Shown in pieces: positions 18,848 through 29,358 of a stretch of 64,000 bases of DNA. The DNA is from an uncultured bacterium. Lineage in GTDB: Bacteria > DUMJ01. Under the pieces are notes generated by a model. That model was not told the origin of the DNA, did not search any database, and saw nothing but the letters and a program-made list of their open reading frames with translations. Position numbers and translations under genes: made by a program. Location: positions 1 to 64,000 of the forward strand of contig CALGNK010000014.1 in assembly GCA_937958695.1 (NCBI GenBank). Direction: 5' to 3'. How positions within the stretch are numbered: the first letter of the stretch is position 1; each line of letters begins with the position of its first letter.

Positions 18848-20587
18848 TTATCGGCTTAGAATTAACTCTTCTATAATTCTCCTCCCATTCATACCAAACT
18901 CTTTGCATCTTTCTGGATTTTTAACAAAGAATTCTATAGCTTCTGCCAATGCTTTGATATCACCGTAGTCAACCAGTTTACCATTTACATTGTCTCTAAC
19001 CAAATATCTAACTCCAACAGTGTTAGTAGCAACAACAGGTTTTCTGGCAGCCAACGCTTCACATACGATCCTTGGGGGCATCCCTTCCTTTTCAGAGGTT
19101 AGGGCAACTAGATCTACAATGCTTAGAAGTTTAGGGATATCACTTCTATAACCAATGAAACGTATCTTATCGGAAAGTCCTTCTCTAGTCACAACTTGCT
19201 TTAACTCTTTTTCTAAGGAGCCATCCCCAACAACAAGACACAAGAGATTCTTATACTTAGGGAATAATAGCTTTAAGCCATCAAAGAGAAACTTGTGTCC
19301 CTTTATGGGTTCAAGTCTTGCTATAACACCTATAACAAACTCGTTGTTAATCTTCAGTTCATTCTTAAGATTCCTTCTCCTTACCTCGTCAATGCTGGAG
19401 AATTCTCTATCGAATTTATCTAGGTCTATCTCCAAATCATAGGATCCTATCTGTGTCTCGGCTAATTTATCTTTCAGTTTTGTAGCTATATCTGCCAAGT
19501 TACTTGCCATATCTGCAAGTCGTATATTTACATTTAATTGTTGTTCAGAGGCAGAGGCGATCTCTTTACTCCCTTTGGTTATCTCGCGACTAGACTCGAC
19601 AGTTTTCTCAATCCTATTAGTCATATCTTTTATATTATCAGCAATCACATTAAAAGTATTGGTCACTTCTTGTAGAATCATTTCTCCCCTCTCTACCTGC
19701 TGATTGCTTGAAGATATTGTACTAATGGTATTAGCCATCTTCTCTGAGAGTTCATCTATAGTAATCTTAATCTTTTCTAGAAAATCCTGTGTCTGATATG
19801 CTAACTGTCTTACTTCATCCGCTACAACAGCAAAACCTCTACCGTGCTCACCGGCACGTGCTGCCTCTATAGCTGCGTTTAATGCCAAAAGATTCGTCTG
19901 CTCTGCTATATTAGATATCACCTTTACTACGTTATTTATCTCACTGAAAGCCCTATTAAGCTCATCAATCATAGCCATTGTTTGATTTATTGCTTGAGTT
20001 ATATCCTGCATCTGTTCTGCCATACTGTTTATATTAGAAATTCCTCCGTATGCTAGTGTCTCAACATTTCTACTTCTTTCTACTATCTCCTCTATGTTTA
20101 GATTTAATTTATCTGTCTCTTGAGTAAGACTCTGAAGAGCAGAATTGACCTCCTCCATCGTATCTGAGGTTTGTTTGATCGTATCGTTTAACTGTCTACT
20201 TGAATTAAGAATCCTCTCAGAAAGAGAATCTAGCTCTTTTATTAGGTTGTTCATACTCTTTAATATAGAGTTAATAGCTAACGTGACCTTATTGAGGGTG
20301 CTATCTTTCTCTTCTGGTAGAATATTCTTAAAACCTTCTTTAGATATTTTCTCTACGTAATTTGCAAACTCCTCAAATCTTCTAACAAGATTTTCCTTTT
20401 CTTTATATATATTTAGGTTCTTATCAAGAGGCTTTAAGAGATTATAAGTGATAAATAGAGAAATACCTAGGAGAATTAGAGCTAAAGGAACCAATATTAA
20501 TGGTTTTGGTATAAATACTCCTAAAAGGATTAGAGAAAAGGTTAGAGCAGATATAACTAAGATAAGCCTCAGATTAATCTCTTTCAT
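18848..20587 (-). CDS. Methyl-accepting chemoreceptor fused to GT-B glycosyltransferase half-domain
   Basis: A 579-aa chimera in one open frame. Two transmembrane segments (about 6-26 and 30-50) have no sensor loop between them. A long coiled coil carries the chemoreceptor hairpin tip [20 protein letters not shown] (228-247) and [13 protein letters not shown]. From about 385 to 575 follows the C-terminal nucleotide-sugar-binding half of a GT4 glycosyltransferase: [32 protein letters not shown] and [20 protein letters not shown]. The N-terminal acceptor half is absent. The two Glu of the EX7E motif are separated by eight residues instead of seven because of a double Pro. It follows the GH3 gene by 24 bases. 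Function is unknown. Confidence 0.85.
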
Positions 20588-20611: not shown

Positions 20612-22864
20612 TTATTCTACGATTACCTCACTATAGAATCTTCTATCCTTCGTTATAGTTTTTGTCTCTGAAACCTCAAATTTACCTGTTAATCTTATAT
20701 CCTCTGAGGATGAACCAATCATAACCTCGAATGTACCTGCTTCTACAATAAATCTCATTGCCTCATCGTAAAATGCTAGTTGGTCCATAAATAACCTGAA
20801 AGTAACCTTCTTTTCTTCCTGTGGCTCTAGGTGAACTCTCTTAAAGCCCTTTAACTCTTTTACGGGTCTTTCTACGCTTGCCCATTCATCGTGTATATAG
20901 AGTTGCACTACTTCGTCTCCAGCCATATTACCTGTATTTTTTATCTTAAGGCTTATATCTACATAACCTCCTGGCAAAACAACCCCTGGCTTAATTTCTA
21001 AGTCTGAATACTCAAATGTTGTATAACTTAATCCATATCCAAATGGGAATAAAGGTTTTGTATCAGTGGTTAGATATTCACTAAATGCGGATGGCTTCCT
21101 ATTATAATAAACTGGAATCTGCCCAACATCTTTTGGAAACGATATAGGAAGTTTCCCCCCTGGATTATAGTCTCCAAATATTACGTCTGCTATAGCATTT
21201 CCACCCTCCTCTCCAGGATACCAAGCTTCTATAATAGCTGATACATTTTCCTTCTCCCATGTTATTGAAAGTGGCCTTCCATTAGTAAGAACTAATACTA
21301 TTGGCTTACCAAGTTCTTTTAAAGCCTTTAAAAGTTCTCTTTGAACCCCAGGAAGGTTTAGGTCGATTCTATCATTGCCTTCTCCAGAGATTCCTCTCTT
21401 GAATAGTCCACTATTCTCTCCCATCACTGCTATAATGACATCAGATTTACTTGCTATATCTAAAGCCTCATTAAAACCTTCTCTCGATTCACTGTTAAGC
21501 TCACATCCTTTGGCATAAAGGATAGTAGTCCTAGAAAAGACTTTACTTTTAATGCCTTCTAAGACTGTTACCGTTCTTATCCCATCTGATACCCCAGCTA
21601 TATGTGAGGTATAACTATAGTCTCCATGTAAACTCTTGGTACTATCAGCATTTGGACCTATAACTGCTATACTCTTTACCTCTTTGCTTATGGGTAAAAT
21701 TCCATCATTCTTTAATAACACGATAGATTTTCTAGCAAACTCTCTTGCAAATGTCCTGTGCTCTGGATTATCTAGCATATCTTTTATTTTACTAGGGTCT
21801 GCATAGATATCATCTTCTAATAGACCTAGGAGTATCTTTGCCCTAAGGACTCTAGATACCGCGGTGTCTATAACAGACATAGATATTGCCCCTTCTTTAA
21901 CTGCTGATAATAGAGGTTCTCCATAGCACTTTATATCTGGTAGTTCTATCTCAATTCCTGCCTCCAACGCTTTTATGGCTGCAGTTTTTAGGTCCTTAGC
22001 GACTTTATGGAATGTGTGTAGCATCTCTATAGCTGAGTAGTCGGAAACCACAAAACCTTTAAATCCCCATTCTTCTCTAAGTACTTTAGTTAATAAAAAC
22101 TTAGAAGAAGCACAGGGAATTCCGTCTATCTCATGATAAGCGTTCATTAAAGAACCGACATTAGCTCTCCTTACCGCAACCTCAAATGGGAATAAGAAGA
22201 CCTCTCTTAACTCTCTTTCAGATACCCTAGCAGGTCCTAGATTTCTACCGCCTTCTGAAATACCGTATGCGGTAAAGTGCTTTGCAGTAGCTATTATACC
22301 TTCTCTCCAATCTTCACCCTGAAGCCCCTTAATATAACTCTCTGCCATCCTTGCTACAAGATACGGATCTTCTCCAAACGTCTCTTCAGTTCTTCCCCAT
22401 CTGGGGTCTCTAGGTATATCAAGAACAGGAGAAAGCCCCTGATGAACGCCAAATGCTTTCATTTCCTTTCTTATGATTGAGGTCATCTTTTGGATATCTT
22501 CTGGCTCAAATGTGCTAGCCATACCTATCGCCTGTGGAAATGTTGTAGCCCCTTTAGTCATAACACCAGATAGACATTCCTCGTGAATTATTGCTGGTAT
22601 ACCTAGCCTTGTTTCCTCCTTGAGAAATTTCTGTATCTCATTTATAATCTCTACAGACTCTAATGGATCTCTCTCAGCATATCCAGCAACCCTAGTTATC
22701 TGGCCTATCCCATTTTTCAAAAGCTCTCTAGCTTTCTCTTTGGAAAATTTTCCATTTTCTACTAACTTACCAGAAGGAACCGAACCAAGCTGTGCTATCT
22801 TTTCCTCTAAGGTCATCTTGGATAATAGATCTTCGATCCTTCTCTGTATCCACTTTTCTTCCAT
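20612..22864 (-). CDS. Glycoside hydrolase family 3 (beta-glucosidase/xylosidase-like)
   Basis: A 750-aa GH3 enzyme that releases terminal beta-linked sugars by a retaining mechanism. The order is TIM barrel (about 1-320) with nucleophile Asp in GFVVSDYSAIEML near residue 275, the alpha/beta sandwich with SKSDVIIAVMGENSG, and a C-terminal fibronectin-III-like domain (KNTGNMAGDEVVQLYI). KHFTAYG and the PRDPRWGRTEETFGEDPYL loop are classic for plant-type and bacterial xylosidase/glucosidase members. It has no signal peptide, so it acts on imported oligosaccharides in the cytoplasm. It sits one base after the pdxA2 stop, with AGGAGG before its ATG. Confidence 0.93.
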   Translation of the reverse strand: MEEKWIQRRIEDLLSKMTLEEKIAQLGSVPSGKLVENGKFSKEKARELLKNGIGQITRVAGYAERDPLESVEIINEIQKFLKEETRLGIPAIIHEECLSGVMTKGATTFPQAIGMASTFEPEDIQKMTSIIRKEMKAFGVHQGLSPVLDIPRDPRWGRTEETFGEDPYLVARMAESYIKGLQGEDWREGIIATAKHFTAYGISEGGRNLGPARVSERELREVFLFPFEVAVRRANVGSLMNAYHEIDGIPCASSKFLLTKVLREEWGFKGFVVSDYSAIEMLHTFHKVAKDLKTAAIKALEAGIEIELPDIKCYGEPLLSAVKEGAISMSVIDTAVSRVLRAKILLGLLEDDIYADPSKIKDMLDNPEHRTFAREFARKSIVLLKNDGILPISKEVKSIAVIGPNADSTKSLHGDYSYTSHIAGVSDGIRTVTVLEGIKSKVFSRTTILYAKGCELNSESREGFNEALDIASKSDVIIAVMGENSGLFKRGISGEGNDRIDLNLPGVQRELLKALKELGKPIVLVLTNGRPLSITWEKENVSAIIEAWYPGEEGGNAIADVIFGDYNPGGKLPISFPKDVGQIPVYYNRKPSAFSEYLTTDTKPLFPFGYGLSYTTFEYSDLEIKPGVVLPGGYVDISLKIKNTGNMAGDEVVQLYIHDEWASVERPVKELKGFKRVHLEPQEEKKVTFRLFMDQLAFYDEAMRFIVEAGTFEVMIGSSSEDIRLTGKFEVSETKTITKDRRFYSEVIVE

Positions 22865-23860
22865 TTAATAAACCTCCTTTCTATACTCTAGCTTTTTCCC
22901 TTTTACTAATTTCACTGCAAAATTAAAGGCATTCTCAAAGCTCTTTATAGTAGCTATACCTTTGTATGCTATGTCATATGCTGTCCCATGGTCAACTGAG
23001 GTCCTCACTATTTTAAGTCCTATTGTTACATTTACTCCTCCTTCAAAGTCTAATAATTTTACCGGTATATGTCCCTGATCATGATACATACAGACAACTG
23101 CAGAGTATAATCCATTATAGGCCTTCCAGAAGACTGTATCAGGAGGTATTGGACCTTCCACATTAATGCCCTCTCTCTTAGCTCTTTCGACCGCAGGCTT
23201 TATCTCTTTTTCATCCTCTTCACCAAAGGCAGAATGTTCTCCGGCATGAGGATTTAAGCCTGCTACTGCTATCTTGGGATTATCTATGAACTTCTTAATA
23301 GTTTCATAGGTAAGTAGGATGACTCTATATATATTCTCCTCCTTTACCATCTCTATAGCATCTCTCAAAGATAGGTGAGTAGATACATGTGTTACTATAA
23401 GTCTATCAGAGGCAAGCATCATAGTATAATTCTTTTCGCCACAGAGCTCTGCTATAAATTCTGTATGCCCTGTAAAATTAGGGAATGTAAGCCTAACTGC
23501 CTCTTTATTTATAGGGAGAGTAACTATCCCATCTAACTTTCCTTCTAAAGCCATTTTAGTAGCCTTTTCTACGTACATTATAGATGCATATCCAACTTTT
23601 TTGGAGGTCTTTCCAATAGTCAAATTACTTCTGTCTATTATACTTAGATCCAATACGTTTAGATGGCCTTCAGCTATATCAGTAAAAGAGTTTATCTTTT
23701 TTATTGGTACGTTATACTTTAAGTATTCATTGGTGAACAATAGGATATCATAATCACCAATAACAATAAATCCTTCTTTGATGCTACCTTTGGCAAAACT
23801 TTTAAGGACTATCTCAGGTCCAACCCCATTTGCATCTCCCATAGTAACGCCTATAAGCAT
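22865..23860 (-). CDS. pdxA2: PdxA2-type 4-phospho-D-threonate/erythronate dehydrogenase
   Basis: A 331-aa member of the PdxA family, NAD- and metal-dependent oxidative decarboxylases. Motifs are VTMGDANGVGPEIVLKSF at the start, TGHTEFIAELCG, NPHAGEHSAFGEEDE and MYHDQGHIPVKLL, which includes metal-binding His residues. It could be the vitamin B6 enzyme, but it lies six bases after a DUF1537 kinase gene. That pairing is characteristic of PdxA2, which oxidises 4-phospho-threonate or 4-phospho-erythronate to dihydroxyacetone phosphate and CO2. No other B6 gene is nearby, so the catabolic role is preferred. Confidence 0.85.
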   Translation of the reverse strand: MLIGVTMGDANGVGPEIVLKSFAKGSIKEGFIVIGDYDILLFTNEYLKYNVPIKKINSFTDIAEGHLNVLDLSIIDRSNLTIGKTSKKVGYASIMYVEKATKMALEGKLDGIVTLPINKEAVRLTFPNFTGHTEFIAELCGEKNYTMMLASDRLIVTHVSTHLSLRDAIEMVKEENIYRVILLTYETIKKFIDNPKIAVAGLNPHAGEHSAFGEEDEKEIKPAVERAKREGINVEGPIPPDTVFWKAYNGLYSAVVCMYHDQGHIPVKLLDFEGGVNVTIGLKIVRTSVDHGTAYDIAYKGIATIKSFENAFNFAVKLVKGKKLEYRKEVY

Positions 23861-23866
23861 CTTATA

Positions 23867-25114
23867 TCACCTATCAGTAATACCCTCTATGAGATTCAGT
23901 ATCTTCTCGATTACATCTTCCTCTCCAAAACCGCCAGCTTTTGAGATAAAGAATATGTCTTCCATGCTAGATAATACTGTTCCTTTATCTATCTCCAGAA
24001 TAGGGAAAAGATGGCTAATACCCATCTTTTCAGTTGTAGATAGTAATGTATCTCCACCAAATACAACCAAAGTATTCGTTCTTTCTATTAATCTCCTTAA
24101 AAGTTTATGCCCTATATCACCCAATCTCTTCGCTACTATAGAAGATAGATCTTCTAGAGTAATTGAATTAGCTTTTGCATATTCTTCATATATCTTTACA
24201 TCTGATGCCTTTTCTACAGTCCTTATAACTACTACCTCACAATTTCTAAGGCTAGAATCACTTAAAAAGAATCTCTTCTTTTTGAATACCACCTCTGGAG
24301 TGAGAACTACATCTAAGACCTTTCTCCTCTTTTTTATATACTCTATCTGTTTTAGTGACCTCTCATTTATACTCCCACAGATTACAATAAGCGGTTGAGC
24401 CTTTAAGTCAATTTTTGGCAGAGTTTTTTCCTTCTTAGAACCCATCAGCCTAACTAGAGTCTCTGCAAATCCTGCACAGCCTGCAGTACATTGGAGAAGG
24501 TTTTCCTCCTTAAGCATAAGTCCTATCTTTTCTAGATCTTCTCTAGTCTCTGCATCGAATATGTATACTCCAAACTCCAGATAACCATCCAATATACTTT
24601 CATATCTGTCCTTAGTAACTACAAATGTCTTTATATCTGCCTGCTCTCTTATAATATCCGGTATATAACTAGTCTTAATAGGATTTAATGGGTCTTGGGC
24701 AAATGCACTCTCTGATATAGGTACCCCATCTACATATTGGATTCCATCTTTAGTTATTCTTCCTTGCTCTGGATATGCTGGGATAAAAAAGATGGGGGAG
24801 TTAAAGACTTCCATAATAGCTTTAAACTCTACTCCGATATTTCCCCTAAGAGTCGAATCTGTTTTTTTATAAACGTAATTTAGTTTTCCATAAATATCTT
24901 TGATATTAGAAATTCTTATAAGTATTAAAACTTTATGGTAAGCATCTTTTGGATCTAGATGCCTGGTTTCACTATCAAGCACAACAACATCCACATCATC
25001 CTCTAAAAATACCGACTCTATCTCTACCCTCGTTAGATAACCATTTTTAGAGAACTGAACACCAGTATCGAGCGCTCCAGTCAAATCATCTGCAACTACA
25101 AGTATATTAGACAT
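23867..25114 (-). CDS. DUF1537 four-carbon acid sugar kinase
   Basis: A 415-aa kinase of the DUF1537 family (OtnK, DtnK and related), which phosphorylate four-carbon acid sugars at the 4-OH with ATP. The N-terminal domain begins ILVVADDLTGALDTGVQF and contains YKKTDSTLRGNIGVEF, both diagnostic. The C-terminal nucleotide-binding domain has VFGGDTLLSTTEKMG and the final AGGFGEED. With the PdxA2-type gene immediately downstream, D-threonate or D-erythronate is the most likely substrate. The spacing to the Cys-rich gene upstream is only three bases. Confidence 0.88.
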   Translation of the reverse strand: MSNILVVADDLTGALDTGVQFSKNGYLTRVEIESVFLEDDVDVVVLDSETRHLDPKDAYHKVLILIRISNIKDIYGKLNYVYKKTDSTLRGNIGVEFKAIMEVFNSPIFFIPAYPEQGRITKDGIQYVDGVPISESAFAQDPLNPIKTSYIPDIIREQADIKTFVVTKDRYESILDGYLEFGVYIFDAETREDLEKIGLMLKEENLLQCTAGCAGFAETLVRLMGSKKEKTLPKIDLKAQPLIVICGSINERSLKQIEYIKKRRKVLDVVLTPEVVFKKKRFFLSDSSLRNCEVVVIRTVEKASDVKIYEEYAKANSITLEDLSSIVAKRLGDIGHKLLRRLIERTNTLVVFGGDTLLSTTEKMGISHLFPILEIDKGTVLSSMEDIFFISKAGGFGEEDVIEKILNLIEGITDR

Positions 25115-25117
25115 AGC

Positions 25118-25315
25118 TTAGTCCTTATATATAGAAATAAATCTAGCTATAGAACGATCATAGGTTCTTTCTACATCTTCTGGAAAGTAGCACGCTGGTA
25201 ATTCTCCGTGGCTTCTATGGTATGCTATACATTCACAGCATATACCTTTTCTAGAACATGGCTCATAAGAACAATTGCATCTTTTCAGATTTCTGTTAAT
25301 ATTACATTCTCTCAT
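25118..25315 (-). CDS. Small Cys-rich protein, DUF6485-like
   Basis: A 65-aa protein with eight Cys: [19 protein letters not shown], then [11 protein letters not shown] and LPACYF. The arrangement matches DUF6485, a family of small Cys-rich proteins in anaerobes with no known role, and suggests a metal site. AAGGAGG precedes the ATG. It lies between the LarA-like and DUF1537 genes, with 14 and three bases of spacing, so it is part of the operon. A metal-delivery or redox role for a neighbour is possible but unproven. Confidence 0.75.
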
Positions 25316-25329
25316 ACACTATAACCTCC

Positions 25330-26562
25330 TTAGAATGGTATTAATTCTCCTTCTTTATCGCATATGTCTACAAAATCACCGATTATTTCTATTCTATCTT
25401 TTATCTCTTCTAGAATACTTTCTGAGATGTATAATTCGCTCAAGCTGAGAGTGTTTTTTATCCTTATAACTCTAGCTCTTTCAATATTTATAGGACCACA
25501 AGTCCTCAACGCCCATTCTATAGCAGTTCTTGAATCTTCAGCTATAATAGGTATCTTACCCCTAAGGACAAATGTACTTGTGATTGCATTCTGATAAGTA
25601 GCATTAAAATCTATCTTGCTGAAAAGCCTATTTGTAATAAAATCTGCAAGACCTAAACCTATAGCGTTTCCATGGGTCTTATCTGTAAGATCAGTAACAA
25701 CAATTCTAGTAATCTTTGGTTTATCAGGTTCTAGTTCTCCATCTATGTATATTCTGCCTATAATGTTTGTATCCATTCCTGCACCACTTATATCTTTTCC
25801 CATCTCATCAACTATCAGGAGATCTAGTTTATCCACAGGTAGAGAGGGCATATTCTCTCTAGCTATCTTAAGAAGTCTCTTGTCTGTCTCTTCAAAATCT
25901 TCAGGCATCACCGCTTCTAATATCATTGTTTCATCATAGGCATTTTCCACTATACCAATGCCAAATATGATATTTCCATGCTCTATAATTCTCTTTGCAG
26001 TTGGTGGGATTAGATATTTTAACCCATATGTCCCAAATCTATGTATCTCTATAGCCTGTTTATGTTTCCCTAGTCCTATTACACACATCTTTAATAATCC
26101 GCTTTCTACGTCACCGTGAAAATCTGTATGAGGTTTTATTCGATTTACTATAATAGTTCCATCTGCAGAATAGGCTATCTTATCCATAAAGACCCTATTC
26201 TCTAGTCCATCGGATGGCAATTCCACAACCTCCATAGATGACAAAATAGGGGCTCCAATAAGATCTTCTCTAACTCCATAACCTTCCAATAGTTTTTTCT
26301 GTCCCTCAGCGGTAGCTCCCCCATGACTACCCATAGCTGGAACAATAAATGGTCTTCCTCCTAGCTCTTTTACTACATCTACTGTAGCTTTTACAATCCT
26401 ATCTATATTTCTTATACCTCTACTACCAACTGCAATAGCTACTTCTGCCCCTGATCTTATAGATATTCCTAACTTAAGTATCTCAGTCCTTACCTTCCCC
26501 TCAATATCTTCTATACGTTCTCTATTAAAGAATTGTCTTACCTTTATTAATTTAGGAATCAT
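25330..26562 (-). CDS. LarA-like nickel-pincer racemase/epimerase (DUF2088)
   Basis: A 410-aa homologue of lactate racemase LarA, whose family interconverts 2-hydroxy acids with a nickel-pincer nucleotide covalently bound to Lys. VPAMGSHGGATAEGQ and NRIKPHTDFHGDVESGLLKM contain the His and Lys residues in the places expected for the pincer site and catalytic acid/bases. The HGG form of the first motif differs from the true lactate racemases, so a different 2-hydroxy acid is likely. In this operon a C4 sugar acid (C2 epimerisation) would make sense. Cofactor genes larB, larC and larE are not in the window. It overlaps the DUF1576 stop by one base. Confidence 0.78.
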   Translation of the reverse strand: MIPKLIKVRQFFNRERIEDIEGKVRTEILKLGISIRSGAEVAIAVGSRGIRNIDRIVKATVDVVKELGGRPFIVPAMGSHGGATAEGQKKLLEGYGVREDLIGAPILSSMEVVELPSDGLENRVFMDKIAYSADGTIIVNRIKPHTDFHGDVESGLLKMCVIGLGKHKQAIEIHRFGTYGLKYLIPPTAKRIIEHGNIIFGIGIVENAYDETMILEAVMPEDFEETDKRLLKIARENMPSLPVDKLDLLIVDEMGKDISGAGMDTNIIGRIYIDGELEPDKPKITRIVVTDLTDKTHGNAIGLGLADFITNRLFSKIDFNATYQNAITSTFVLRGKIPIIAEDSRTAIEWALRTCGPINIERARVIRIKNTLSLSELYISESILEEIKDRIEIIGDFVDICDKEGELIPF

Positions 26563-27806
26563 TAATACCTTATCTCCTTCTCAATAAGATGTGGTTTTAG
26601 GTCTCTTAGAAGAGCCACTATGACTATGGCTACAAGACCGCCGGAAAAACCATTATTGTAAAGGTTCATATAACCGTGCATCTCTCCAACATGCATAACC
26701 ATTGGAAGATGAAGCATACCTGCAAGTAAACCAATAAACGGTCCAAATCTTCCGCTAAATGGAGCCAGTGTTGTTCCAAAGAGCGCAGCCAAAGTTGGGC
26801 CAGGATCTGAATGAAGCCAGACCTTAGGAATACATATAAGATAAACTCCTAACATTATAGGTAACACATTCTTTATATGTTTTCCCAATGCGCCAAAGCC
26901 GACTATAGTAAAGATTCCTGCTATTACAGGACCATTTATATCTCCACCTATAAGTTTTACATATAATAGACCTAATAATCCAAGTATTCCCATATTTATA
27001 AGAACACTACCTAAACCTCCTATTTCAACAAAGTCGGTTATAAGTCTTCCACTCTCTCTTACTATCTTTTTTATACCTCTTATATCTTTATCTAACGATA
27101 GTCCAAGTACAATAAAAGAAAGAAAATATACGAGTAATATAGGAAATAATATCTCAGTATGCTCTTTACTCCAGTGCATAACTGGTGATATCTTAAAACC
27201 AAATCCTTTTAACATTATATAGTATATAGTTCCTACAATTCCACCTGTAGTCCCAACATTGTATAGATTATAACCTTGGTGTAGGCTATAAACGTGTTTA
27301 GCAAGTGCAGATACAAGCATACCCATAATGATGCCCATTATTATCCCCCATATAATACCAAAATTAAATCCAAAGGCGGTTTGACTTACCGTAGGTGCTA
27401 GTGTTGTTCCAAAGAGACAGGGAGCAATATAGTTCTTCAGTTGTCGTTTAGTAAGCTTAGAGAAAAGACAAACGCCGAAAATGATAGGCCAAATATTAAA
27501 TATGTTTTTCCCAAACATAGCAAAGCCAGACATAGTAAAGACTCCTGCTATGACTAAACCAGAGATGTTAACCCCACTGAGATATGAGACAACCACCCCA
27601 CTGAGACCTACAAGTCCGGCATTTATAAAGGTAGCCCCCAACCCTCCTATGGCTATATAGTCGGTTATAAGTATACTAGGAGATTTAAGTATATTCAAAA
27701 GACCAACACCTATCTCTTCGATTGGTGATAGAAAGAATCCAATAGCTATAAGCGCTAAGTGATAAACTATTAACATTAAAAGAATCTTAACTTTTATCTT
27801 GGACAC
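26562..27806 (-). CDS. DUF1576 membrane protein with internal duplication, putative transporter
   Basis: A 414-aa polytopic membrane protein with roughly ten to twelve helices. It is built of two similar halves. ITDYIAIGGLGATFINAGLVGL pairs with ITDFVEIGGLGSVLINMGIL. VIAGVFTMSGFAMFGKNI pairs with VIAGIFTIVGFGALGKHI. LFGTTLAPTVSQ pairs with LFGTTLAPFSGR, and YNLYNVGTTGGIVG with YMNLYNNGFSGGLVA. Inverted or tandem repeats of this type are typical of secondary transporters. The family has no established function. It lies between the helicase gene (20-base overlap) and the LarA-like gene (one-base overlap), so uptake of the operon's acid substrate is a reasonable guess. Confidence 0.72.
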   Translation of the reverse strand: MSKIKVKILLMLIVYHLALIAIGFFLSPIEEIGVGLLNILKSPSILITDYIAIGGLGATFINAGLVGLSGVVVSYLSGVNISGLVIAGVFTMSGFAMFGKNIFNIWPIIFGVCLFSKLTKRQLKNYIAPCLFGTTLAPTVSQTAFGFNFGIIWGIIMGIIMGMLVSALAKHVYSLHQGYNLYNVGTTGGIVGTIYYIMLKGFGFKISPVMHWSKEHTEILFPILLVYFLSFIVLGLSLDKDIRGIKKIVRESGRLITDFVEIGGLGSVLINMGILGLLGLLYVKLIGGDINGPVIAGIFTIVGFGALGKHIKNVLPIMLGVYLICIPKVWLHSDPGPTLAALFGTTLAPFSGRFGPFIGLLAGMLHLPMVMHVGEMHGYMNLYNNGFSGGLVAIVIVALLRDLKPHLIEKEIRY

Positions 27807-29358
27807 CTCCTCTAAGTATTTTTAGTTCTAAGATTCTATCGATCCTAAATGTTCTGTTCTCTTTTCTGTTATAACAATAACTGGCTACACCAAGAAACTT
27901 CTTACCATTGTAAGAGAATTCTCCTATTTCAAGAGGCTTTATAATTCTTCTAGACTTCTCATCATTGGGTTTTAGATAGGTTATAGATAAGTTTGCATCT
28001 TCCTCTATGGCTTTTTTAATTATATTTATCTTCTCCTCTAAAGGTGTTCTTTCTTCAGATAATTGATACTGGAATTTAGTTAAAAATTCTACGATGCGTC
28101 TATCTAGTAGAATATGAGACTTTTTTATTGGTTTTTTAAGGAAAATTCCCTCAAAGGATGTGCATCTACTAAGTGCTACATATACCTGTCCGGGGGCAAA
28201 GATTCCTCTAGCCAGATCTATAATAACCTTATCAAAAGTCTTACCCTGACTCTTATGGATGGTAACCGCCCAAGCAAGTTTCATTGGATACTGTGTAAAT
28301 GAGCCTATCTCTTCTGTCTCTATCATCTGCGTCTTTTCATTATATCTATAATGGAATATTTCCCATGTGTAAGGAAATATATCCTCTATGTTTCCATCTG
28401 GAAATTGGACCTCAATAACATCGTCTTCAATACCTTTACTAGACCTTATACCAATAACCTTTCCTATAGAGCCATTTACCCATCTTCCCTTAGAATCATT
28501 GTTTAGCATCATCACTTGAGCACCCTTTTTAATTTGAAGTACTAAATCCACAGGATATGAGCCTTCTTCAAACTCTCCCTCTATATAAGCCTCCCAAGTG
28601 TATAATTTACCTCTAAGTTTGCCAAGTTTTTCTCTATTAATCTTATCTGCTGTTTCATTTAGAGGGGTGAGATAGACCGTATAATCAGAATCTGGCGGAG
28701 GTTCTAATCCAACCCTACTATTTAAGAGAGCTAGACTCTCTTCTTTTATAGTATTATTTCTAATCTCATTCAAAAGTCTAATGAATCTCTCATCTTTTTG
28801 TCTATAAACTTTTTCTAGTTCTATAAATTCTAAAGAGACTTCCTTAAATACATCAGCATCAAAAAAATACTGACTTTTATATCTTTCAGTAAAGAATCTT
28901 TTCTCTTTTGAGGTAACTACAGGTGGGAGTTGGTACAAATCTCCTATAAATATCATTTGTATCCCACCAAAGGGCTCTCCCTCTTCTCTTCCATTTAACC
29001 GAAGAAAGTAATCAACACAATCTAGGAGATCTGACCTAACCATCGATATCTCATCAATTACAATAGTGTCTAATTCTTCGTAAAGCTTTCTCTTTTTAGG
29101 TGAAAGTCTATTTATATTCTGTATAGTTATATTCGGTTTAAAACCGAAAAAAGAGTGGATAGTCTCTCCACCAACATTTAATGCGGATACACCAGTTGGT
29201 GCAAGAACAGCTAGTTTCTTCTTTGTTATAGAACGAAAATAGTTTAGAAGGGTAGATTTTCCTGTCCCTGCTTTACCAGTGATAAATATATTTCTATCTG
29301 TGTTCTCCATCAAATCTATGGCCCTTTTAAACTGTTCATTCAGTTCGATATTAGTCAT
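27787..29358 (-). CDS. Pif1/RecD-like SF1B DNA helicase
   Basis: A 523-aa ATP-dependent 5'-3' helicase of the Pif1 group, which unwinds G-quadruplexes and forked DNA. Walker A is ITGKAGTGKSTLL (25-37), followed by LAPTGVSALNVGGETIHSFF and the Walker B stretch DTIVIDEISMVRSDLL. LPPVV and the C-terminal AWAVTIHKSQGKTFDKVIIDL and QVYVALSRCTSFEG (UvrD_C2) complete the helicase motifs. A WYL-like tail (SYNGKKFLGVASYCYNRKENR) ends the protein. It is the first gene of the long minus-strand operon and overlaps DUF1576 by 20 bases, although its function seems unrelated to sugar acids. Confidence 0.9.
   Translation of the reverse strand: MTNIELNEQFKRAIDLMENTDRNIFITGKAGTGKSTLLNYFRSITKKKLAVLAPTGVSALNVGGETIHSFFGFKPNITIQNINRLSPKKRKLYEELDTIVIDEISMVRSDLLDCVDYFLRLNGREEGEPFGGIQMIFIGDLYQLPPVVTSKEKRFFTERYKSQYFFDADVFKEVSLEFIELEKVYRQKDERFIRLLNEIRNNTIKEESLALLNSRVGLEPPPDSDYTVYLTPLNETADKINREKLGKLRGKLYTWEAYIEGEFEEGSYPVDLVLQIKKGAQVMMLNNDSKGRWVNGSIGKVIGIRSSKGIEDDVIEVQFPDGNIEDIFPYTWEIFHYRYNEKTQMIETEEIGSFTQYPMKLAWAVTIHKSQGKTFDKVIIDLARGIFAPGQVYVALSRCTSFEGIFLKKPIKKSHILLDRRIVEFLTKFQYQLSEERTPLEEKINIIKKAIEEDANLSITYLKPNDEKSRRIIKPLEIGEFSYNGKKFLGVASYCYNRKENRTFRIDRILELKILRGGVQDKS

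What the first reader, a model, noticed from the sequence alone, without database searches (positions are those of the whole stretch)
23867..27806. Four-carbon acid sugar operon with a LarA-like enzyme, DUF1576 and DUF6485
DUF1537 kinase plus PdxA2 is an established pair for D-threonate/D-erythronate degradation. Here they are joined in one tightly packed operon to a LarA-like nickel-pincer protein, a membrane protein of unknown function and a tiny Cys-rich protein. A coherent hypothesis is that DUF1576 imports a C4 hydroxy acid, the LarA-like enzyme epimerises C2, and the kinase and dehydrogenase yield dihydroxyacetone phosphate. That would give functions to three uncharacterised families.
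Basis: partly seen in the sequence, partly recalled or inferred. Interest (0 to 1): 0.7.

Follow-up and report, generated by a model that had tools for sequence, protein, structure and literature searches.

The report
Tetronate operon with predicted nickel epimerase
A bacterium of an unclassified lineage keeps a kinase and dehydrogenase known to break down four-carbon sugar acids beside a relative of the nickel enzyme lactate racemase, and this grouping recurs in distant phyla, which suggests that the nickel enzyme flips one carbon so that both forms of the acid at that carbon can be eaten.

Summary
The genes are real. A DUF1576 membrane protein, a group-22 LarA homologue, DUF6485, a DUF1537 kinase and PdxA2 follow one another on the minus strand; PdxA2 lies just outside the given coordinates. 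The LarA assignment holds: NCBIfam NF052515 (535 bits, cut-off 400), a confident model with the LarA fold, and invariant residues matching catalytic and cofactor residues. larE-larB-larC lie together on the same contig, 5.6 kb past the window end. The single PdxA is probably not the B6 enzyme, since PdxS is present. LarA22-DUF1537 adjacency recurs in Bacillota, Gemmatimonadota and Bacteroidota (with PdxA in the last two), and all these LarA22s fall in one supported clade. So the core, LarA22 as C2-epimerase feeding a D-threonate/D-erythronate kinase and PdxA2, is supported though unassayed. DUF1576 and DUF6485 do not hold up as conserved parts: both sit there only in this genus. DUF6485 occurs in 30% of sampled genomes and was not seen beside these genes elsewhere. 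DUF1576 as importer remains possible, because a GntP permease takes its place in Bacteroidota. Tight packing is no evidence; it is normal in this window. Class: new variant of a known pathway.

The parts
26562..27806 (-). DUF1576 membrane protein (414 aa, two repeats of the family domain); possible C4-acid importer
   Evidence: PF07613 365.6 bits, two stretches; conserved in place only within the genus; AlphaFold model failed, pLDDT 38.7
25330..26562 (-). LarA homologue of group 22, predicted nickel-pincer-dependent 2-hydroxyacid C2-epimerase (410 aa); invariant R48, H80, H145, K158, H174
   Evidence: NF052515 535.6 bits; AF2 model pLDDT 93.7; Z 21.0 to LarA 9eia/9eid, next non-LarA Z 6.0; invariant residues
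25118..25315 (-). DUF6485, 65-aa Cys-rich protein; probably a passenger
   Evidence: PF20095 37.7 bits; 102 of 336 genomes, no conserved neighbours
23867..25114 (-). DUF1537 four-carbon acid sugar kinase, nearest to D-threonate kinase (DtnK/DenK type)
   Evidence: PF07005 and PF17042; NF047819 D-threonate kinase 198.7 bits vs NF043035 3-oxo-tetronate kinase 93.1 bits, both under cut-off
22865..23860 (-). PdxA2-type 4-phospho-tetronate 3-dehydrogenase
   Evidence: PF04166 341 bits; nearest solved chains 2hi1 (4-hydroxythreonine-4-phosphate dehydrogenase 2) 255 bits and 6e85 (D-threonate 4-phosphate dehydrogenase) 250 bits vs 1ps6 175 bits; only PdxA in genome and PdxS present
27787..29358 (-). 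PIF1-like helicase with C-terminal WYL domain, first gene of the co-directional run; not part of the pathway
   Evidence: adjacency kept only within genus
20612..22864 (-). GH3 glycoside hydrolase, co-directional, starts directly after PdxA2; link to the pathway unknown
   Evidence: adjacency seen in one same-genus genome, the other stretch ends before it

Best explanation
This is a catabolic module for four-carbon aldonic acids (tetronates). The DUF1537 kinase phosphorylates D-threonate and/or D-erythronate at C4. PdxA2 oxidises C3 and the product decarboxylates to dihydroxyacetone phosphate. The group-22 LarA homologue carries the nickel-pincer nucleotide made by LarB/LarC/LarE and inverts C2 by proton-coupled hydride transfer. 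It thereby interconverts D-threonate (2S,3R) and D-erythronate (2R,3R), which differ only at C2, so that one kinase/dehydrogenase pair serves both. Shown here: gene content, family membership, LarA fold of the model, invariant residues at the expected positions, larEBC in the genome, and recurrence of LarA22-DUF1537(-PdxA) in distant phyla. Inferred: the reaction and the exact substrate. DUF1576 may import the acid (weak); DUF6485 is probably a passenger.
For: NF052515 hit. AF2 model pLDDT 93.7; Foldseek E 4e-10 to malate racemase 7s91, and all 17 hits under 0.001 are LarA-family chains; Z 21.0 to LarA of I. pallida, next non-LarA fold Z 6.0. R48, H80, H145, K158, H174 invariant in 34 group-22 sequences; the K158-H174 spacing (16) equals K184-H200 of LarA; hhalign pairs H80 with the LarA H108 column (weak). 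larE/larB/larC adjacent in the genome. One PdxA only, and PdxS present. LarA22-DUF1537 in L038 (Bacillota), LarA22-DUF1537-PdxA in L039 (Gemmatimonadota) and L045 (Bacteroidota); GntP permease (PF02447) directly upstream in L045 and convergent in L039. All DUF1537-linked LarA22s fall in one clade of 17 (SH-aLRT 99), which also holds Spirochaetota LarA22s beside a glycerate 2-kinase. KEGG orthologues K22129/K22024 are named for both D-threonate and D-erythronate (PMC13185595). LarA homologues epimerise 4-deoxy-threonate/4-deoxy-erythronate at C2 (PMC11770544).
Against: No group-22 member has a measured activity in the papers I could read. The DUF1537 kinase is below the NCBIfam cut-offs for D-threonate kinase (198.7 of 450) and 3-oxo-tetronate kinase (93.1 of 350), so its substrate is not assigned. 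Most group-22 LarAs are not next to DUF1537: only 3 loci outside the genus. The nearest LarA22s outside the genus (L128, L187, about 60% identical) sit with split transketolase and Zn-dehydrogenase genes instead. The genome has two other LarA homologues, so larEBC could be there for them. Residues matching LarA D72 and K298 were not resolved.
Confidence: 0.55

Rival explanations
1. LarA22 acts on the 4-phosphates: the kinase phosphorylates one epimer (for example D-erythronate), LarA22 converts 4-phospho-D-erythronate to 4-phospho-D-threonate, and PdxA2 takes only the latter.
For: Same gene context; explains why kinase, epimerase and dehydrogenase travel together.
Against: The LarA substrates reported in the papers read are free acids. 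No phosphate site was tested in the model.
Confidence: 0.12
2. LarA22 of this clade is chiefly a glycerate racemase or a broad short 2,3-dihydroxyacid racemase/epimerase; tetronates are only one of its substrates.
For: Spirochaetota members of the same clade lie beside a glycerate 2-kinase relative and, in two of three, tartronate semialdehyde reductase (488.8 bits, cut-off 397, in L040) and GntP. Some LarAs racemise glycerate well.
Against: The window and three other lineages pair it with a DUF1537 acid sugar kinase, not a glycerate kinase.
Confidence: 0.18
3. The genes are co-directional by chance or through general packing, and LarA22 serves another pathway.
For: Tight packing is the norm in this window: 38 of 47 co-directional gaps are 30 bases or less. 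The run includes a helicase, a GH3 and an MCP/glycosyltransferase gene. DUF1576 and DUF6485 are there only in this genus.
Against: LarA22-DUF1537 adjacency, co-directional and in the same order, in four separate lineages.
Confidence: 0.12

Closest known systems
DtnK/DenK + PdxA2 pathway for D-threonate and D-erythronate (Zhang et al. 2016, PNAS; full text not held, read through PMC10971088 and PMC13185595)
   Same: DUF1537 kinase next to a PdxA2-type dehydrogenase; the genome's only PdxA, with PdxS present for B6
   Different: An NPN-dependent epimerase is part of the cluster; the permease slot holds DUF1576 here and GntP in Bacteroidota
LarA superfamily of NPN-dependent racemases/epimerases, group 22 (NCBIfam NF052515)
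   Same: Family score over cut-off, LarA fold, invariant catalytic and cofactor residues, larEBC in the genome
   Different: Group 22 has no reported activity in the papers read; it is so divergent that Pfam Lar_N does not hit the protein and a 34-sequence profile finds no solved LarA by sequence
GntE, D-gluconate 2-epimerase (Thermotoga maritima LarAH20; PMC7583248)
   Same: NPN-dependent C2 epimerisation of an aldonate so that it can enter another catabolic route
   Different: Six-carbon substrate, other LarA group; here the partner enzymes are for four-carbon acids
[quoted passage not shown]
   Same: DUF1537-family kinase on a four-carbon acid skeleton
   Different: No aldolase-type OtnC, OtnI, LtnD or DenD gene next to the kinase here; the kinase scores higher with the DtnK model than with the 3-oxo-tetronate kinase model

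Membership tests
LarA superfamily (NPN-dependent racemase/epimerase) | Curated family model over its cut-off | tested here: met
   NF052515 535.6 bits, cut-off 400
LarA superfamily (NPN-dependent racemase/epimerase) | LarA fold | tested here: met
   Model pLDDT 93.7; Z 21.0, rmsd 4.4, 322 residues to 9eia_B; next non-LarA Z 6.0
LarA superfamily (NPN-dependent racemase/epimerase) | Lysine and histidine that bind NPN and nickel (K184, H200 of LarA) | tested here: met
   K158 and H174 invariant in 34 sequences, same spacing of 16; assigned by spacing and motif, not by superposed coordinates
LarA superfamily (NPN-dependent racemase/epimerase) | Two catalytic histidines (H108, H174 of LarA) | tested here: met
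   H80 and H145 invariant; H80 pairs with the H108 column and H145 falls at or next to the H174 column in a weak hhalign alignment
LarA superfamily (NPN-dependent racemase/epimerase) | Other catalytic residues D72 and K298 of LarA | tested here: inconclusive
   R48 (perhaps R75) and K256 are invariant, but no reliable residue pairing was obtained
LarA superfamily (NPN-dependent racemase/epimerase) | larB, larC, larE in the genome | tested here: met
   L023:7562-10318; NCBIfam TIGR00268, NF033503, TIGR00299 and NF052512 over cut-off
LarA superfamily (NPN-dependent racemase/epimerase) | NPN-dependent inversion at C2 | not testable with these tools
   needs an assay
DUF1537 four-carbon acid sugar kinase | SBD_N and NBD_C domains | tested here: met
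   PF07005 164.7 bits, PF17042 51.8 bits
D-threonate kinase DtnK (NF047819 equivalog) | Score over the equivalog cut-off of 450 | tested here: not met
   198.7 bits; so not filed as DtnK, only as nearest to it
PdxA2 (4-phospho-tetronate 3-dehydrogenase) | PdxA family, nearer to PdxA2 than to PdxA | tested here: met
   254.8 and 250.1 bits to 2hi1 and 6e85 vs 175.5 to 1ps6; yet below the equivalog cut-off of NF002891, D-threonate 4-phosphate dehydrogenase (293.7 of 583), and over that of the general pdxA model TIGR00557
PdxA2 (4-phospho-tetronate 3-dehydrogenase) | Not the B6 enzyme: separate B6 route present | tested here: met
   PdxS found on C11, one PdxA only; PdxT and PdxJ not searched
DUF1576 as tetronate importer | Conserved neighbourhood with tetronate genes beyond the genus | tested here: not met
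   none of 7 loci outside the genus
DUF1576 as tetronate importer | Transporter fold | tested here: inconclusive
   model pLDDT 38.7; no solved relative by sequence; no hhalign match to GntP

The most novel reading that the evidence does not exclude
The group-22 LarA clade is the first NPN-dependent tetronate C2-epimerase, merging D-threonate and D-erythronate catabolism, and DUF1576 is a new carrier family recruited to import these acids in place of GntP.
Probability: 0.22. Interest if true: 0.65.

Novelty: new variant of a known kind. Interest (0 to 1): 0.5.

Why it matters
Group 22 is present over its cut-off in 37 of 386 sampled genomes, yet the papers read report no reaction for it. A four-lineage link to a characterised kind of kinase, with PdxA in three of the four, gives it a narrow, testable substrate list, and would add a nickel-dependent entry step to tetronate catabolism.

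Tried and rejected
(1) Operon packing as evidence: rejected, packing is the norm in the window. (2) DUF6485 as pathway part: rejected on distribution and context. Outside the genus DUF1576 is followed in 4 of 7 loci by a 115-134 aa protein with no Pfam hit over its cut-off. (4) A profile of 34 group-22 sequences against PDB sequences gave only spurious matches, so LarA membership was tested by fold. (5) hhalign of group 22 to the genome's other LarA gave a weak, partial alignment. (7) Extra surveys centred on G238 and G150 reached only 4 and 3 genomes. (8) The 2016 PNAS paper and the supplementary tables of the LarA papers were not available, so whether DUF1537 was already noted beside group 22 could not be checked. 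(9) The careful tree did not finish; the quick tree was used.
Full report
What is there. Minus-strand genes from 29358 down to 18848 form one co-directional run: PIF1-like helicase with WYL, DUF1576, LarA-like, DUF6485, DUF1537, PdxA, GH3, MCP/glycosyltransferase. The five families named in the finding are all present; PdxA lies just outside the given coordinates. In two same-genus genomes the order from helicase to PdxA is kept (one contig ends inside PdxA), and GH3 follows in the one whose contig reaches it. Packing itself says little: the median gap between co-directional neighbours in the window is 3 bases.

Is the LarA-like protein a LarA? Pfam finds nothing, but NCBIfam NF052515, 'nickel pincer cofactor-dependent isomerase, group 22', scores 535.6 bits against a cut-off of 400. 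The AlphaFold model is confident (pLDDT 93.7). Foldseek's 17 hits below 0.001 are all LarA-family chains, and VIA-align gives Z 21.0 (rmsd 4.4, 322 residues) to I. pallida LarA against 6.0 for the first non-LarA fold. In 34 group-22 proteins R48, H80, H145, K158 and H174 never vary. The LarA residues are H108 and H174 (catalytic), K184 (thioamide link) and H200 (nickel) (PMC7583248, PMC12611868, PMC11770544). K158-H174 has the same spacing as K184-H200. The counterparts of D72 and K298 were not resolved.

Can the cell make the cofactor? larE, larB and larC are adjacent at C14:69562-72318, 5.6 kb past the window end, each over its NCBIfam cut-off. They also have other possible clients: a LarA nearest the LarAH10 and malate-racemase models on C1, and a group-18 'putative hexonate epimerase' on C50.

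Kinase and dehydrogenase. The DUF1537 protein is nearer to D-threonate kinase than to 3-oxo-tetronate kinase but below both cut-offs. The PdxA is nearer to PdxA2 and D-threonate 4-phosphate dehydrogenase than to the B6 enzyme among solved structures. It is the genome's only PdxA, and PdxS is present, so a role in B6 synthesis is unlikely. KEGG names these orthologues D-threonate/D-erythronate kinase and 4-phospho-D-threonate/4-phospho-D-erythronate 3-dehydrogenase (quoted in PMC13185595). The two acids are C2 epimers (established chemistry), and C2 is the position LarA enzymes invert. LarA homologues have been shown to epimerise 4-deoxy-threonate and 4-deoxy-erythronate, slowly (PMC11770544).

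Neighbourhoods elsewhere. LarA22-DUF1537 adjacency occurs in L038 (Bacillota, contig ends in the kinase), L039 (Gemmatimonadota, followed by PdxA) and L045 (Bacteroidota, followed by PdxA). In L045 a GntP permease precedes LarA22, in the place DUF1576 holds here; in L039 a GntP gene lies convergent to PdxA. In a tree of 69 group-22 proteins all DUF1537-linked rows fall in one clade of 17 (SH-aLRT 99; quick tree). The same clade holds Spirochaetota proteins beside a glycerate 2-kinase relative, two of three also with tartronate semialdehyde reductase and GntP, Chloroflexota ones beside GH4 or an FGGY kinase, and G238 (L128). G386 (L187), found after the tree was built, is 62% identical to the window protein; both L128 and L187 have split transketolase and a Zn-dehydrogenase beside LarA22. 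Hence the clade looks like one of sugar-acid catabolism, with tetronates the best supported substrate for this operon and glycerate a live rival. Inside the clade 3 of 14 non-genus rows have DUF1537, outside 0 of 52 (Fisher 0.008, rows not independent).

DUF1576 and DUF6485. DUF1576 is rare (11 of 386 genomes, three of them this genus and one a sub-cut-off match), and its seven other loci show no LarA22, DUF1537 or PdxA; four have a 115-134 aa protein next to it. G143 has both DUF1576 and a LarA22, 1.7 Mb apart. Its structure could not be predicted from the three sequences allowed. The importer idea rests on membrane character and on the GntP replacement in one lineage. DUF6485 is in 102 of 336 genomes without a conserved neighbour; in the non-genus genomes that also hold a group-22 LarA over its cut-off it lies on another contig or, in G143, 0.4 Mb away.

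Verdict. The core of the interpretation, a nickel epimerase feeding a tetronate kinase and PdxA2, is supported by comparative evidence and unassayed. The claim that this would give functions to three uncharacterised families shrinks to one, the group-22 LarA, with DUF1576 possible and DUF6485 unsupported. Malate has no support here.

Noticed in passing
window 18848-20587: One ORF joins a methyl-accepting chemotaxis signalling domain (residues 192-350) to a group 1 glycosyltransferase domain (406-570), an unusual pairing; may be a fusion or an assembly join.
   Followed up: no
L148:8397-9677 and L149:8273-9436 (same genome, other contigs): Two further LarA homologues: one nearest the LarAH10 and malate-racemase models beside a DHDPS-like aldolase, and a group-18 putative hexonate epimerase (601 bits, cut-off 500).
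   Followed up: partly
L040, L043, L044: Spirochaetota group-22 LarA divergent from a MOFRL glycerate 2-kinase relative; two of the three also have tartronate semialdehyde reductase and GntP: a candidate glycerate racemase cluster.
   Followed up: partly
L128, L187: Group-22 LarA (about 60% identical to the window's) beside split transketolase subunits and a Zn-dehydrogenase, with TRAP or ABC transport genes nearby.
   Followed up: partly
L085, L086, L087, L089: DUF1576 is followed by an uncharacterised 115-134 aa protein family in four genomes outside the genus; the pair may be the family's usual form.
   Followed up: partly
L033, L190: Group-22 LarA followed by a class V aminotransferase, an FGGY kinase and a Zn-dehydrogenase in two genera of one family.
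   Followed up: no
window 27787-29358: PIF1-like helicase carrying a C-terminal WYL domain.
   Followed up: no
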